A stretch of DNA of 64,000 nt from Pseudomonas shahriarae (lineage in GTDB: Bacteria; Pseudomonadota; Gammaproteobacteria; Pseudomonadales; Pseudomonadaceae), in contig NZ_CP077085.1 of NCBI RefSeq assembly GCF_014268455.2, positions 4,319,001 to 4,383,000 on the forward strand, read 5' to 3'. A program made the translations under genes and the position numbers. Positions 40,306-51,750 of the stretch are shown piece by piece. Position 1 is the stretch's first letter; the number at the start of each line of letters is the position of its first letter. The notes below the pieces were generated by a model. The model was not told where the DNA came from. It saw only the letters and a program-made list of their open reading frames with translations, and made no database searches.

Positions 40306-40451
40306 GGCAGATTGCCAGGTCATAGGTTGTATTGCTTTAGAGCCATCTGAGGGGTGTCGAGGGAGCGAAAGCGGACTAGGGTTTTATCTATTCCGACCAC
40401 CGACACCTACCAGCAGAGCGACCTATGGACCAACGGATCTTGTCCTCCATT

Positions 40452-40475
40452 ATTCCTTACCCTAAGGTAAGGAAT
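40452..40475. promoter_or_regulatory. Palindromic operator ahead of vapB
   Basis: Perfect 10-base arms ATTCCTTACC / GGTAAGGAAT around CTAA, ending 21 bases before the antitoxin ATG. AbrB-type antitoxins with their PIN toxins bind such palindromes to repress their own operon. Confidence 0.65.
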
Positions 40476-40496
40476 ATCCCGATGGAGATCTTCATT

Positions 40497-40739
40497 ATGG
40501 CCACCGCCACACTCACCTCAAAAGGGCAAATCACCATCCCCGTTCAAGTCCGCAGCGCGTTGGGCCTGGACACCGGAGACCGGGTGGAGTTTGTCGAAAT
40601 GGAAGATGGCAAGTTTGCCATTATCGCTGCCAACCACAGCATCCAGGACCTCAAGGGCCTGATCCGCAAGCCCGCCAAGGCCGCCAGCATTGAACAAATG
40701 AACCAGGCCATCGCCGCGCAGGGAGCGAAAGCGGGATGA
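40497..40739 (+). CDS. vapB: AbrB-family antitoxin (VapB-type)
   Basis: 80 residues from ATG 40497 (GGAG 9 bases upstream; the longer frame from 40425 would run through the operator). N-terminal swapped-hairpin AbrB domain ('ATLTSKGQITIPVQVRSALGLDTGDRVEFVE'), then a C-terminal arm ('SIQDLKGLIRKP') that would wrap around the toxin. The stop overlaps the toxin ATG (ATGA), so both are made together. Confidence 0.88.
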   Translation: MATATLTSKGQITIPVQVRSALGLDTGDRVEFVEMEDGKFAIIAANHSIQDLKGLIRKPAKAASIEQMNQAIAAQGAKAG

Positions 40740-41131
40740 TTGGCCTGGATACCAATGTGCTGGTGCGCTATGTCACTCAGGACGATCCGGTTCAATCGGC
40801 CAAGGCCTCGAACCTGATCGAATCCCTGACCGTTGTTTCACCGGGCTTCGTCAGCCTGGTCTCGGTCGTGGAGCTGGTATGGGTATTACAGAGCTGCTAC
40901 CAATGCACCAAGACGCAACTGGTGGCGGTTCTGGAAACCCTGCTGCGCACCCGTGAACTGATCATCGAAGATGCCGAACTCATCTGGCAGGCCGTGCGCC
41001 GATTTACCACGACCAAGGCTGACTTCGCCGACTGTTTGATCGAACGCTGTGCCCACGCTGCCGGGTGCGAATACACCGCCACCTTTGATATCGATGCCGC
41101 GAAAGCCGTCGGCATGCGTCGCCTGGGCTGA
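40736..41131 (+). CDS. vapC: PIN-domain toxin (VapC-type RNase)
   Basis: 131 residues. PIN acids are in place: D5 in 'GLDTNVLVRY', E46 in 'VSVVELVWVL', D98 in 'KADFADCLI' and the late Asp in 'TFDIDAAKA'. VapC toxins cut tRNA or rRNA when the antitoxin is lost. Overlaps vapB by ATGA. No mobile remnant is seen next to the pair, though such modules often move. Confidence 0.9.
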   Translation: MIGLDTNVLVRYVTQDDPVQSAKASNLIESLTVVSPGFVSLVSVVELVWVLQSCYQCTKTQLVAVLETLLRTRELIIEDAELIWQAVRRFTTTKADFADCLIERCAHAAGCEYTATFDIDAAKAVGMRRLG

Positions 41132-41609: not shown

Positions 41610-42533
41610 TTACGACGCACGCACCATCGCCTGCCTCTTCAAACGGACCAGAATCAGCCCAACCACCACCACCGCAATTCCCACATACGTCGACGTATAA
41701 ATCACATCGCCAAACATGACTGCCGCCCAGACCAACGTCACGGGGGGTTCCAGATACACCAGCGCTGCGACGTGGGTAGCGGTCATGACCCGTAACAACA
41801 TCCAGAGGCTCAGATACGCGACAAACGTAGAAAACACCGTCAGCCAAACGATCGAGACCAGTACGGCGCTGTCCCGGGGAATGCTGAACGTATCGGTGTA
41901 GAGCACGGCCGCAGTGAAGCCCATCAAGGTAATCAGCGACTGGATAAACAGTGACAGGCTCAAGGGGCTGCGATGAGTTTGTCTAAGCGTTGAGCGCCGT
42001 TCATATAACGTCGCCATCGTCAGCCCCAGTGCAGAGACAAGCGGCAGTAAATACATACCCAGTCCGAGCTCGGCAGCACTATTGCGGTACTGCCCCGCGA
42101 TCACAATCGACACCCCGCAAAAACCAACCAGCAAACCCAGCCATTGCCACGCTCCGCTGCGCTCTGTCGTACTGCCCGATGAAAGTGCAGCGGTCATCAG
42201 CGGCTGAAGCGCAGCGATGATCGCCGCAATACCTGGCGGCAAACCATTTTGGATCGCCACATAGACACAACTCAAATAGAGAAACTGCGACAAAAAACCG
42301 ATCACCGCATGGTGGCGAATTTGCTCCCAGGAAACCTTCAGCAGCGCGATATTCAAAAACAGCGCCAGACAGACTGAGACCAGCAAAAAACGCCAGAACA
42401 GCAAGTTGAACGCTCCCGCATCCTCGGCCCCCATCTTCGCTCCAATAAAACCGGAGCTCCAGGACAAGACAAACACTATCTGCAATAACAGTAACTTCAG
42501 CGTTCCCAAAGTCGTGCTCTTAGGCGACATCAT
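41610..42533 (-). CDS. EamA/DMT-family transporter, last gene of the methyltransferase operon
   Basis: 307 residues from ATG 42533, which overlaps the oxygenase gene by 14 bases (an ATG at 42530 is also possible). Ten membrane helices in two EamA repeats ('VFVLSWSSGFIGAKMGAEDAGAFNLLFWRF' is a typical first repeat; 'LVYLEPPVTLVWAAVMFGD' closes the second). Members export amino acids and related metabolites. Coupling to the oxygenase and methyltransferase genes suggests it exports their product; a role as importer of the substrate cannot be ruled out. Confidence 0.88.
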   Translation of the reverse strand: MMSPKSTTLGTLKLLLLQIVFVLSWSSGFIGAKMGAEDAGAFNLLFWRFLLVSVCLALFLNIALLKVSWEQIRHHAVIGFLSQFLYLSCVYVAIQNGLPPGIAAIIAALQPLMTAALSSGSTTERSGAWQWLGLLVGFCGVSIVIAGQYRNSAAELGLGMYLLPLVSALGLTMATLYERRSTLRQTHRSPLSLSLFIQSLITLMGFTAAVLYTDTFSIPRDSAVLVSIVWLTVFSTFVAYLSLWMLLRVMTATHVAALVYLEPPVTLVWAAVMFGDVIYTSTYVGIAVVVVGLILVRLKRQAMVRAS

Positions 42534-43509
42534 TATTACCCCTGGATATCGCCAGTTCGGTAAAGGTAATAGGCTCAATGCCCAGTCGACGGTATTGCTC
42601 GTCAGCGGGCAATGCCAAGTCGCGCCTAAGCTGGAACCATGGCCGGATAGTCCTCAGTACACCGTCGTCGGATGCCAGGTGCCAGAACTTGTTCACATCG
42701 ACTGAGCTGTAAGGACAATGAAATGAAAGGACCAACGACATACGCCTGCCGGCCGTGACCGGGCGAACACCATGAAACACACGGCTACCGTAAAGGTAGA
42801 CCGCATCGCCACTGGCCCTGACTACGCTGGTACATACGTGTCCATCCAGGTTACTCACATCAAAAAGCTCGTTCCGCTGGTCAAAAAAAACGAACTCTCC
42901 ACCTTCATACTCACCAGGGTCCGATAGCAGGATATTCAACACGAAACTGGTGCCGTCGGTATGCCACATGCCAATCTGGGCTTTATCCTCAGGGGCCTGG
43001 CGCGGGTAGAAATAGTTGACCTGTGAACGCGCCCGTAAAAATGGGTGGGGCACCAAAGGGACACCTGCAATCTGCGACACCGCCAACAAAAAAGCGCGAC
43101 TACCCATCATCTCCCGAATAAGGGTCGAGGACTCAGTGGCGGCGCGGGTGCGATTGGAAATAATCCAGTCGCTGGTGGTAGAGCCCGCCTCCAACTGATA
43201 ACAAGCTCGACGTAGTTGCGTGACGCCCTCTTCGGTGAATAGTCCCGCAACCTGTGCCACGGCTGTTAGTTGCTCAGCCGAAGCGACGCCCAACGGCGAG
43301 TTCACATAACCAAGCTCGGCAAGACTTTGGCGATGCCCGAATGCTGGAACACTGTTGCGTAAGTAGCTGTCACTCCAATGCTTAAAGGTATCGAGCAATG
43401 CCCCTGGATGCTTGCATCGTAACGATGCTGGAGAAAGCGACGCCTGCAACGCCAGTTTCAGCCGTCCTGCTCCCTGTACAAATACCGGAAGGTCACCGTC
43501 TCGTCTCAT
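42520..43509 (-). CDS. 2-oxoglutarate/Fe(II)-dependent oxygenase
   Basis: 329 residues; GAGGTGG 7 bases before ATG 43509. Double-stranded beta-helix core with the iron ligands H183-x-D185 ('WHTDGTSF') and H246 ('RVFHGVRP'), and the 2-oxoglutarate-binding Arg near 255-256 ('AGRRMSLVLSF'). 'NYFYPRQAPEDKAQIGMWHTDG' is the prolyl-hydroxylase-like entry. The first 120 residues form an extra helical domain I do not recognise. It would hydroxylate or otherwise oxidise a small molecule or peptide. Placed 12 bases after the methyltransferase gene and overlapping the exporter gene, so it probably acts on the methylated product or its precursor. Confidence 0.87.
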   Translation of the reverse strand: MRRDGDLPVFVQGAGRLKLALQASLSPASLRCKHPGALLDTFKHWSDSYLRNSVPAFGHRQSLAELGYVNSPLGVASAEQLTAVAQVAGLFTEEGVTQLRRACYQLEAGSTTSDWIISNRTRAATESSTLIREMMGSRAFLLAVSQIAGVPLVPHPFLRARSQVNYFYPRQAPEDKAQIGMWHTDGTSFVLNILLSDPGEYEGGEFVFFDQRNELFDVSNLDGHVCTSVVRASGDAVYLYGSRVFHGVRPVTAGRRMSLVLSFHCPYSSVDVNKFWHLASDDGVLRTIRPWFQLRRDLALPADEQYRRLGIEPITFTELAISRGNNDVA

Positions 43510-43521
43510 GGCTATCCACCT

Positions 43522-44517
43522 CTATCTGTCAGTGCAATCGTGGTCCAGGCAATACTCGGACAGTTGATACATAACACTGCCATCTCCGCTGCAATACTCA
43601 CCAATTACTCGGCAACTGCCGTACTCCTGGCGCACACGGATGAATTGCTCGCGGGTGTATTTCAGGCAGACATTCGTCAAGAGATAGCCATCATCGTGAC
43701 CGTCATGGACGGGCAACAACGTTGCAGCTACACGGTAGCGCTCATCGTGGTGCTCGATTTCGGAGATGATGACCCGATGGCTATCCGTTTTCTCCAAACC
43801 CAGTTTCAACCCGATCAGATCAGAAAACCGAATCATGCAATCGTGGTTATAAAAACGATGGATATGAGCGTCATCCTCAACCGTGGACAACTGCATTTCT
43901 GACAAGACGTACGTTCGCATGCCGCCCACCCGGCGGATGATCTCGCCTACGGTATCGGGCAACTCATTGCCCTCTTGAAAGCCCAGCATTGTAATTAGCG
44001 TCACATCCTGACCGCGTTCAAGCTGGTGCCTGGACAAGTCCCGGAAATCAGTGGCCAGATAGGAAAACCCCTGAGGAGTGGCCAGCATCGGCTCAATCGC
44101 ACGACGCATGATGCCCTGCGAAGCACAGTTGATATCGACCGCGGTGTAATACTCAAGCTCAATGCCACACTCAAGCAAATACCCCATCAGGGCGGATGTT
44201 TTCACTGGTTCTGGACCCAGTTCGACGTAATGAACGCTGCCCTGCCCCAGGAGATCGACCAGATCTCCAGCGACTGATTGCAGCAGGTCACCCAGGGAGC
44301 CCGTTCCGCAAGGCGCGGCGCATACGCCTTCGTCGCTTATCCCCTGGCTATTCAAGGCGGTCATCAGCGCTAGTATTTCTGCGCTGACTTGCTGCGAAAG
44401 CTCCGTCCGATGCTCAGACAAGGTCGAATATTTCTCAGCGTTTTCAATAGTCCAGATTCTTCCTTCCAGGTCATGATTGTTCTGCAAGGACGCTACAACC
44501 AGCGTGTTGATATCCAT
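43522..44517 (-). CDS. EgtD-like SAM-dependent amino-acid N-methyltransferase
   Basis: 331 residues; GGAG before ATG 44517. It belongs to the histidine-specific methyltransferase family (Methyltransf_33): SAM motif 'YVELGPEPVKTSALM' (residues 97-111), 'YTAVDINCASQ' with D128, 'TLITMLGFQEGNEL', and the C-terminal 'YLLTNVCLKYTREQF' (279-292). In EgtD the matching segment reads T-E-V-S-C-K, where Glu282 and Ser284 hold the histidine; here it is T-N-V-C-L-K, so the substrate is probably not histidine. No EgtB-type sulfoxide synthase lies near, so it is not an ergothioneine gene. First of three genes with the oxygenase and exporter. Confidence 0.85.
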   Translation of the reverse strand: MDINTLVVASLQNNHDLEGRIWTIENAEKYSTLSEHRTELSQQVSAEILALMTALNSQGISDEGVCAAPCGTGSLGDLLQSVAGDLVDLLGQGSVHYVELGPEPVKTSALMGYLLECGIELEYYTAVDINCASQGIMRRAIEPMLATPQGFSYLATDFRDLSRHQLERGQDVTLITMLGFQEGNELPDTVGEIIRRVGGMRTYVLSEMQLSTVEDDAHIHRFYNHDCMIRFSDLIGLKLGLEKTDSHRVIISEIEHHDERYRVAATLLPVHDGHDDGYLLTNVCLKYTREQFIRVRQEYGSCRVIGEYCSGDGSVMYQLSEYCLDHDCTDR

Positions 44518-44639
44518 ATACGCTCCAACTCTTTCTTATTAGGTATGCAGGTGCGCTCTTGTTTGACCAAAAGACTAAAGTGGGGTCATGATTTTGTATA
44601 TTTGAATAATCCGCACCACTAATCCTCAAAAGAGGAATC

Positions 44640-45497
44640 ATGAACAAACAACTGAACATCGACCTTCTACGCACCTTTCATGCGGTTGCCCGCTTTCGGC
44701 GTTTCAATGAAGCAGCCAACCATGTCCATCGCAGTGCATCGACTGTCACCACTCAAATCCACAAGCTGGAGCAACTGGTGGGTCAACGGTTGTTCAGCCG
44801 CAACAACCAGGGCGTCGAACTCACGATGTATGGCAAGAAGTTGCTGAGTGAAACCACTGACTTTCTGAAAAGCCATGACCGCCTGCTCGCATCACTCACG
44901 CCACAACGCATGCAGGGCAAAATCCGCCTGGGCTTGCCTGACTCATACGCTCCGGCATTTATGCGTGACTTCCTACCGTTGCTGATTGCAGACAATCCGC
45001 TGCTTGAACTGGAGGTGGAAGCCAGGTCCAGTGGTGAGCTGTTCACAATGTTCAGTCGCGAACAAATTGACTTGGCACTGATTGTCAGCTCACAACCGCT
45101 GGAACAGGGTGAACGTCTCGGCACGATCCAACCCGTCTGGGTAGTTGCCGAGAATTTCCAGAGATCCGAGCAGGCACCGCTGCCCATTGCAGTGCAGCTG
45201 ACCGGGTGCCCATACCGGGCATCGGCCTTACAGGCCCTGAAAGAGCATGGGGTTTATTACCGAGTCCTGCTGGAGAGTGCCAGCTCGACGGCTGTGGAGG
45301 CGGCCATCATGTGTGGGCTGGCGGTCGGGATGATTGAGGAGGAGCGCATGACCACCGGGCTGACCAAACTCATCCCCGGAATACAGTTACCTGGGCTGCC
45401 GCCGCATCAGCTTTATTTACTTTCTGATAGCGCTAATCATCTGGCATTGCACCTACATGAGCAGATCAAAAAAGGGTTCAGTATTCGGCCCTTTTGA
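44640..45497 (+). CDS. LysR-family regulator of the methyltransferase operon
   Basis: 285 residues; AGAGG before ATG 44640. Helix-turn-helix 'RFNEAANHVHRSASTVTTQIHKLEQLVGQRLFSRN' and a standard effector-binding domain. It faces the methyltransferase gene across 122 A/T-rich bases, the classical layout for a LysR regulator and its target. The effector is likely the pathway's substrate or product (inference). A terminator follows. Confidence 0.92.
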   Translation: MNKQLNIDLLRTFHAVARFRRFNEAANHVHRSASTVTTQIHKLEQLVGQRLFSRNNQGVELTMYGKKLLSETTDFLKSHDRLLASLTPQRMQGKIRLGLPDSYAPAFMRDFLPLLIADNPLLELEVEARSSGELFTMFSREQIDLALIVSSQPLEQGERLGTIQPVWVVAENFQRSEQAPLPIAVQLTGCPYRASALQALKEHGVYYRVLLESASSTAVEAAIMCGLAVGMIEEERMTTGLTKLIPGIQLPGLPPHQLYLLSDSANHLALHLHEQIKKGFSIRPF

Positions 45498-50065: not shown

Positions 50066-51004
50066 TTAATCGATCAGGCTGGCAAGCAGACGCGCACCAA
50101 TGCGGGCGGTTCGATTGTCGATATCCAGGCCGGGGTTGAGTTCGGCGATATCGGCCATGCGCAATTTGCCGCTGGCCTTGGCATGGCGTATCAGATGCTC
50201 GACGATCTGCATGTCCACGCCATGGGCAGACGGCGCACTGACACCGGGCGCCTGGCTGGCGGGCAGGACATCAAGGCAGATGGTCAGGTAGAGGTGATCG
50301 ACGTCTTGCAAGAACTCATCGATCATCGCTTCGCAGGCGGGTATGTCCCAGCTGTTCATTTGCCGGTCGAGGCGGTAACGCACATTCAGTCGCTGCGCCT
50401 GCTCAAACAGCGCCTGGGTGTTGTTCAACTGGCTGACACCCAGGCAGCAATAGGTGAACGGCATCCGTGCACGCTGGCAGTACTCGGCTATCTGGCGGAA
50501 AGGGGTACCCGAACTGCTTTGTTCCCCATGGCGCAGATCGAAGTGGGCATCAAAGTTGAGAACGCCGATCCGCGCATGCGGGGTGGCCTGGCGCAGGTGA
50601 TCGGCCAGGCCGCTAAAGCTGGCAAAGGCGATTTCATGGCCGCCACCCAACCCCAACGGCAAATGCCCCTGGTTGAGCAGATAGCTGACGTGGTGAGCGT
50701 AAATCTGCTGCGCGCCTTCGAGGTTGCTGTCGGTGCAACTCACATCGCCCGCGTCATACAGCGGCGCCCGGCCGTGCCACGCCTGGTTGGCCAGCGCCTT
50801 GCGCAGTGCTGACGGGCCAAGACGGGCGCCGGTGCGTCCTTGATTCCGTCTGACTCCTTCATCACAGGCCAGCCCAATCAGTGCGGCACCCGCAGACTGA
50901 CCCTCGCAGAAGGGCTTGACCCATTGATGCCAGCGCAGCGCAGCCTGCCCTTCGCCAGCGTCGATACGACCTGTCCACAGGGGTATGTCAGAAACAGCAG
51001 TCAT
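50066..51004 (-). CDS. hutG: Formimidoylglutamase-like ureohydrolase
   Basis: 312 residues from ATG 51004 (GGAG 8 bases upstream). Arginase-fold enzyme with metal-site motifs '[14 protein letters not shown]', '[11 protein letters not shown]' and '[10 protein letters not shown]'. The pattern fits formimidoylglutamase (formiminoglutamate to glutamate and formamide), as in the short histidine-degradation route. No other hut gene is in sight; Pseudomonas mostly uses the two-step HutF/HutG route, so this may be a side paralogue. Followed by gltS; regulated probably by the upstream IclR protein. Confidence 0.85.
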
Positions 51005-51024
51005 GCTTGAAACTCCAGTCAAAT

Positions 51025-51750
51025 TCAGTCGAGCCGAGCACTCAGGCGCAGGGCCGCGTCCTGGGTCCAGCGGATCAGGCGTTCACTGCGGGTGTGCGCC
51101 CGGGAGGCAGGAGCCATGAGGCTGATGGCGCCTTGCAGGCGATTGCGGCTGTCAAGCAACGGCGCGCTGATACCCCAAATGCCGTCGTCGATTTCACTCA
51201 CACTCACGGCATAACCGGCAGCGCGGATATCGGCAAAACTGCGCTGGTACGTGGCGACTTCCTCGCTTTCGACGCCTTGCGCCAACAGAGCCGACAGGCT
51301 TTGCGCCTCATCCATATAGGCCAACAGCACTCTCGCCGATGCACCGACCAACAGCGGCTGGGCCAGCCCTTTTTGGTAGCAGCAACGCAGCGGTTGTGGG
51401 CTATCGACCAGCTCGATGCAAATCGCCTGGCCATTGCTGGGCACCATTAACGCCACGCTTTCCTGGCTTTGCTCGGCCAGGCGCTTGAGTTCCGGCTTGG
51501 CGAGGGTCACCAGCACGGCTTCGCGGTCGAATTTCTTGGCCAGTTGCAAACAGGTTGGCCCTGGCAAATAGCGACCCTGACCGTTCTCTTCGGCAAGCCC
51601 CCAGCGCAGTAAGGTCTTGAGATGGCGATAAGTGCTGCTGAGCGGCTGTGCCAGTTGCTCGGACAGTTCTTTGGCGGAGATCGCCTCGCTGGATTGCCCC
51701 AGAGTGACGAGGATTTGCAGCAAGCGATCAGTGGGCGTGTTGTAGTTCAT
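51025..51750 (-). CDS. IclR-family regulator
   Basis: 241 residues; GAGG before ATG 51750. N-terminal helix-turn-helix ('[31 protein letters not shown]') and C-terminal IclR effector domain ('[26 protein letters not shown]'). First gene of the line IclR-hutG-gltS on one strand (20 bases to hutG), so it probably controls its own operon in answer to a histidine- or glutamate-related compound. Confidence 0.92.

What the first reader, a model, noticed from the sequence alone, without database searches (positions are those of the whole stretch)
41610..45497. Compact EgtD-like methyltransferase / 2OG-Fe(II) oxygenase / EamA exporter operon with its own LysR regulator
Three tightly coupled genes (12-base gap, then 14-base overlap) encode a SAM methyltransferase of the histidine-betaine family, an iron oxygenase with intact H183-D185-H246 site, and a small-molecule exporter; a LysR gene faces them. 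There is no EgtB, OvoA, NRPS or ATP-grasp gene, so it is not ergothioneine, ovothiol or a known peptide pathway. The EgtD substrate segment is changed (T-N-V-C-L-K in place of T-E-V-S-C-K), which predicts a non-histidine amino acid. The likely product is an N-methylated, oxidised amino acid that is exported: I know no described pathway of this make-up.
Basis: partly seen in the sequence, partly recalled or inferred. Interest (0 to 1): 0.8.

Follow-up and report, generated by a model that had tools for sequence, protein, structure and literature searches.

The report
Minimal methylate-hydroxylate-export amino acid operon
A small regulated gene set in some soil Pseudomonas and Burkholderia seems to methylate an amino acid, oxidise it and pump it out; I found no description of its product or of its methyltransferase group.

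The parts
43522..44517 (-). MT: EgtD-fold SAM-dependent methyltransferase of the N-x-C-x-K clade, 331 aa
   Evidence: ORF; homologues; AlphaFold model pLDDT 94.6, nine best solved folds all EgtD; separate clade from 15 EgtDs
42520..43509 (-). OX: Fe(II)/2-oxoglutarate oxygenase with H-x-D...H and Arg, 329 aa, BesD/HalD-like fold
   Evidence: Pfam PF03171 6.6e-6, PF23169 HalD 1.1e-5; H183/D185/H246/R256 60 of 60; model pLDDT 88.3, ten best solved folds are the Hal/BesD/Hydrox set
41610..42533 (-). EamA (DMT superfamily) transporter, likely exporter; ATG start overlapping OX by 14 bases (mechanical ORF begins at TTG 42578)
   Evidence: PF00892 1.4e-22; present in 29 of 30 related loci
44640..45497 (+). 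LysR-type regulator facing the operon
   Evidence: PF00126 and PF03466; divergent LysR in 30 of 30 related loci
44595..44609 (-). conserved element TTATTCAANTNTACA in the MT/LysR gap, likely LysR binding site
   Evidence: only match in the window with up to 1 mismatch, 0.05 expected; core TCAANTNTACA once in each of 18 of 19 named Pseudomonas loci, 68-107 bases before MT

Best explanation
A LysR-controlled minimal pathway. MT transfers one or more methyl groups from SAM to the alpha-amine of a free amino acid that is not histidine; OX hydroxylates that amino acid (before or after methylation); EamA exports the product, giving an extracellular N-methylated hydroxy-amino acid or betaine. The sister form, mostly in alphaproteobacteria, makes and exports the methylated amino acid alone (MT plus an MFS transporter). 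Shown: gene content, conservation, co-occurrence, predicted folds, motif changes, the shared promoter element. Inferred: amino acid as substrate, N-methylation, hydroxylation, direction of transport, LysR binding to the element. Unknown: which amino acid, how many methyls, order of steps, biological role.
Against: No activity data. The window's MT has no Pfam or NCBIfam hit, and no PDB sequence match better than E 0.27 alone or as a profile. EamA and MFS proteins are not all exporters. In one genome (G238) MT is gone while OX, EamA and LysR remain, and in Pseudomonas cerasi EamA is reduced to a trace, so the parts are not always kept together. The profile comparison of OX with HalD proteins was not significant (probability 0.7%, E 0.078); SnoK/SnoN lie only 1 to 2 Z units below the Hal/BesD set, and one entry of the lysine hydroxylase ranks below them. 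The element was not found exactly in the 10 Burkholderia loci, the Stenotrophomonas locus or P. cerasi. High distance correlations partly reflect species relatedness.
Confidence: 0.6

Rival explanations
1. Defence against a toxic amino acid: LysR senses an amino-acid-like toxin from a plant, fungus or neighbour; MT (and OX) disable it and the transporter removes it.
For: Divergent LysR plus a transporter in nearly all loci; patchy occurrence (17 of 398 Pseudomonas; only the own genome among 398 Pseudomonadota); the shortest form is only MT plus MFS.
Against: Two coupled modifying enzymes in the Pseudomonas/Burkholderia form are more than disabling needs; nothing in the sequence names a toxin.
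Confidence: 0.2
2. MT is not a methyltransferase but a SAM cyclase like AzeJ, making azetidine-2-carboxylate, which OX hydroxylates and EamA exports.
Against: AZE-synthase signature motifs PFNxxGN and RxxYYxxC (passages of PMC11794875) are in 0 of 92 family members; EgtD scores 7 Z units higher over about 40 more residues.
Confidence: 0.06
3. MT is a far-diverged histidine methyltransferase and the product is a hydroxylated hercynine.
For: EgtD fold and the aligned alpha-amine and carboxylate residues.
Against: Separate clade with 100% SH-aLRT support; Glu282 and Ser284 both replaced; no EgtB in the genome.
Confidence: 0.07
4. A compatible-solute or nutrient pathway in which the transporter takes up or recycles a methylated amino acid.
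For: Methylated and hydroxylated amino acids are known osmolytes (recalled); transport direction cannot be read from sequence.
Against: The near NCBIfam hits of EamA are mostly named exporters, all far below their cut-offs; no catabolic gene in the operon.
Confidence: 0.07

Closest known systems
EgtD, histidine N-alpha-methyltransferase of ergothioneine synthesis (PF10017, TIGR03438)
   Different: 16% identity; own clade; Glu282/Ser284 replaced by Asn/Cys; no EgtB in the genome; linked instead to a transporter and LysR
BesD/HalD family of free amino acid halogenases and their lysine hydroxylase homologue (PF23169; 6nie, 7u6i, 7jsd)
   Different: metal Asp185 present where the halogenases have Gly; residues aligned with BesD H137 and D143, which contact lysine (passages of PMC13244439), are Gly180 and Gly186 (alignment not significant overall); about 75 residues longer than the HalD protein of L104
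Ergothioneine (EgtB-EgtD) and ovothiol (OvoA) operons
   Same: an EgtD-fold methyltransferase and an iron enzyme side by side
   Different: OX is a 2OG oxygenase, not a sulfoxide synthase; EgtB not found in the genome, OvoA only a 23.5-bit fragment
AzeJ/VioH azetidine carboxylate synthases
   Different: two of their signature motifs are absent in 92 of 92

Membership tests
EgtD | EgtD fold | tested here: met
EgtD | falls in the EgtD clade / passes TIGR03438 | tested here: not met
   no NCBIfam hit; 46 MT and 15 EgtD rows split with 100% SH-aLRT on a very long branch
EgtD | Glu282 and Ser284 of the histidine site | tested here: not met
   T-E-x-S-x-K in 0 of 92, N-x-C-x-K in 91 of 92; the aligned Glu and Ser are invariant in 15 EgtDs
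EgtD | makes hercynine from histidine and SAM | not testable with these tools
   needs an enzyme assay
Ergothioneine or ovothiol pathway | EgtB or OvoA sulfoxide synthase in the genome | tested here: not met
   TIGR03440 no match at E 0.001; TIGR04344 one 23.5-bit fragment, cut-off 400
BesD/HalD family | fold of the family | tested here: met
BesD/HalD family | Pfam PF23169 over its cut-off | tested here: inconclusive
   25.3 bits against 26; 26.0 and counted as over in the genome search
BesD/HalD halogenases | Gly in place of the metal Asp (H-x-G) | tested here: not met
   Asp185 in 60 of 60; H-x-G in 11 of 11 high-scoring Pseudomonas HalD proteins
BesD-type lysine specificity | His137 and Asp143 beside the metal motif | tested here: inconclusive
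   Gly180 and Gly186 in the profile alignment, which was not significant overall
AZE synthase (AzeJ) | motifs PFNxxGN and RxxYYxxC | tested here: not met
   0 of 92

The most novel reading that the evidence does not exclude
A previously unrecorded class of very small natural-product pathway: a regulator, an EgtD-fold methyltransferase of a new substrate class (N-x-C-x-K) and a transporter form a portable 'methylate and export' unit, to which Pseudomonas and Burkholderia added a BesD-like hydroxylase, so that a new exported amino acid betaine is made from one amino acid, SAM, O2 and 2-oxoglutarate without NRPS or ligase.
Probability: 0.4. Interest if true: 0.75.

Novelty: new variant of a known kind. 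Interest (0 to 1): 0.6.

Why it matters
If true it adds a substrate class to the EgtD fold, known to me for histidine and, in fungi, dimethylallyltryptophan (recalled), and a natural-product pathway so short that I would expect cluster finders built on large assembly enzymes to pass over it (inference, not tested). It occurs in several Pseudomonas groups and in Burkholderia of the cepacia complex, so the exported compound could matter between bacteria or between bacteria and plants. Three genes are easy to express, so the product question is directly testable.

Tried and rejected
Sequence searches of the PDB with MT, OX and their profiles found only chance-level matches for MT (E 0.27 or worse) and for OX (E 0.038 or worse); the link to EgtD came from fold and profile comparison. 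PHROGs gave nothing for MT and phage records no match. In the plasmid collection five records matched, three chromosome-sized Burkholderia replicons well and two Rhizobium records at chance level; the one opened has no annotation there. The MT profile over 398 Pseudomonadota found only the own genome, against 106 of 398 for PF10017, so a phylum-wide neighbourhood survey was not possible. The named loci come from a scan with two exact peptide patterns, so relatives without them were missed. A second weak MT hit in L103 (27% over 112 residues) lies in a region that, by offset, corresponds in L036 to the strand opposite PutA; I took it for chance. Rejected: ergothioneine or ovothiol synthesis, halogenation, AZE synthesis (see the membership tests). 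The Foldseek 'pdb' search was never accepted, so VIA rows are only a second look at Foldseek's own list.

Paper searches (10 of 10 used; those aimed at the operon or the family were 15, 23, 31, 52, 84, 95, 105) listed no paper that I recognise as describing this operon. Several lists were cut (for example 15 of 227, 12 of 48). Search listings with the start of each abstract were seen; passages were read of PMC13245600, PMC8593015, PMC11794875 and PMC13244439; look-ups in PMC10187165 and an earlier one in PMC13244439 showed no passage. Most subscription journals are not held.

Rows dropped: MT alignment A3 uses the window plus 91 of the 120 listed homologues (151 found); the tree uses every second row of A3, 46 of 92, plus 15 of 30 fetched EgtDs. 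OX alignment A4 uses the window plus 59 of 64 hits. HalD alignment A6 uses 9 of 11 high-scoring loci. Of six ORFs beside EgtDs tested for EgtB, five were EgtB and one, on the wrong strand, matched nothing.

Full report
What is there. The window is part of a 6.05-Mb single-contig genome, by its relatives a Pseudomonas; the nearest named locus is from P. gessardii (MT 93%, LysR 97%, Mqo 99% identity). The neighbours scanned are ordinary: AbrB-type antitoxin and PIN protein, Mqo, an enoyl reductase, PpnN, a HAD hydrolase, another LysR, cytochrome b561, a glutamate symporter, an arginase-family protein and an IclR regulator.

How widely it is kept. A search of 398 Pseudomonas genomes found MT in 17 (the own genome included) at E <= 1e-10 and OX in 18 at E <= 1e-5; all 17 MT genomes are among the 18. 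The other one, G238, keeps OX, EamA, LysR and Mqo, while an unrelated ORF stands where MT should be. The scan of named genome contigs, which relied on two peptide patterns, returned 53 loci. Thirty are from Pseudomonas (19), Burkholderia (10) and Stenotrophomonas (1); all 30 have LysR facing MT followed by OX, and 29 have EamA next. Pairwise protein distances of MT against OX, LysR and EamA over 30 gene sets (the window and 29 loci) correlate at 0.965, 0.945 and 0.916, as expected of genes that travelled together, though species relatedness contributes.

The sister form. The other 23 loci (by record title Roseibium/Labrenzia, Roseovarius, Ferruginivarius and other alphaproteobacteria, and Kushneria, a gammaproteobacterium as I recall) have an MT relative of 29-34% identity. 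An MFS transporter stands beside MT in 23 of 23, upstream in Kushneria and downstream in the rest; LysR faces MT in 21 of 23; OX and EamA are found in 0 of 23. Of the two without LysR, L049 begins 154 bases before MT, and the Kushneria contig is 3.3 kb long. Five of the transporters were checked and match MFS_1 and MFS_4. This comparison, which goes beyond the finding, suggests that regulator, methyltransferase and transporter are the core, and that the oxygenase belongs to the Pseudomonas/Burkholderia form, where the transporter is of another family. It implies that the methylated compound itself is what the transporter carries. Which form is older is not shown.

Regulation. The MT/LysR gap holds TTATTCAANTNTACA at 44595-44609, the only match in the window with up to one mismatch (0.05 expected). 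Its core TCAANTNTACA occurs exactly once in each of 18 of the 19 named Pseudomonas loci of this form, 68-107 bases before MT, although these loci span MT identities of 41 to 93%. It is also kept in G238, where MT is lost. It is not found exactly in P. cerasi, the 10 Burkholderia loci or Stenotrophomonas. I take it as the LysR site; binding is untested.

How it most likely works. LysR responds to the substrate or product and turns on the operon. MT methylates the alpha-amine of a non-histidine amino acid; OX hydroxylates it; EamA puts it outside. Two enzymes whose nearest solved relatives act on free amino acids, coupled to a transporter of a family rich in exporters, make this more likely (0.6) than detoxification of an amino acid analogue (0.2), a SAM cyclase route (0.06), a histidine product (0.07) or an osmolyte or uptake role (0.07).

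Novelty. Seven of the ten paper searches were aimed at the operon or its methyltransferase family and listed no description that I recognise; the library is open-access and several lists were cut, so this is not proof. The enzymes are variants of known kinds; the combination and the N-x-C-x-K clade appear new. Interest 0.6: real, conserved, testable, but the product is unknown.

Noticed in passing
L101 4426-4851 (genome G238): In one Pseudomonas genome MT is absent and an unrelated short ORF occupies its place while LysR, OX, EamA, Mqo and the promoter element remain: a natural MT loss for comparison.
   Followed up: partly
L044 and L102 (P. cerasi): LysR, MT and OX are present but EamA is reduced to a 26-residue trace, and the promoter element is not found exactly.
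   Followed up: partly
L048-L070: Sister loci, mostly alphaproteobacterial: LysR facing an N-x-C-x-K-type methyltransferase next to an MFS transporter, without oxygenase.
   Followed up: yes
window 40425-41131: AbrB/MazE-type antitoxin and PIN-domain protein directly beside the operon; by eye the PIN gene and a PpnN-like gene are also in L101.
   Followed up: no
window 50066-51750: Arginase-family protein next to an IclR regulator, about 5 kb from the operon; substrate not examined.
   Followed up: no
L104-L123: PF23169 (HalD) proteins in 45 of 199 Pseudomonas genomes; 11 have the H-x-G of halogenases, L121 and L122 have H-x-D, the rest examined show no clear motif.
   Followed up: partly
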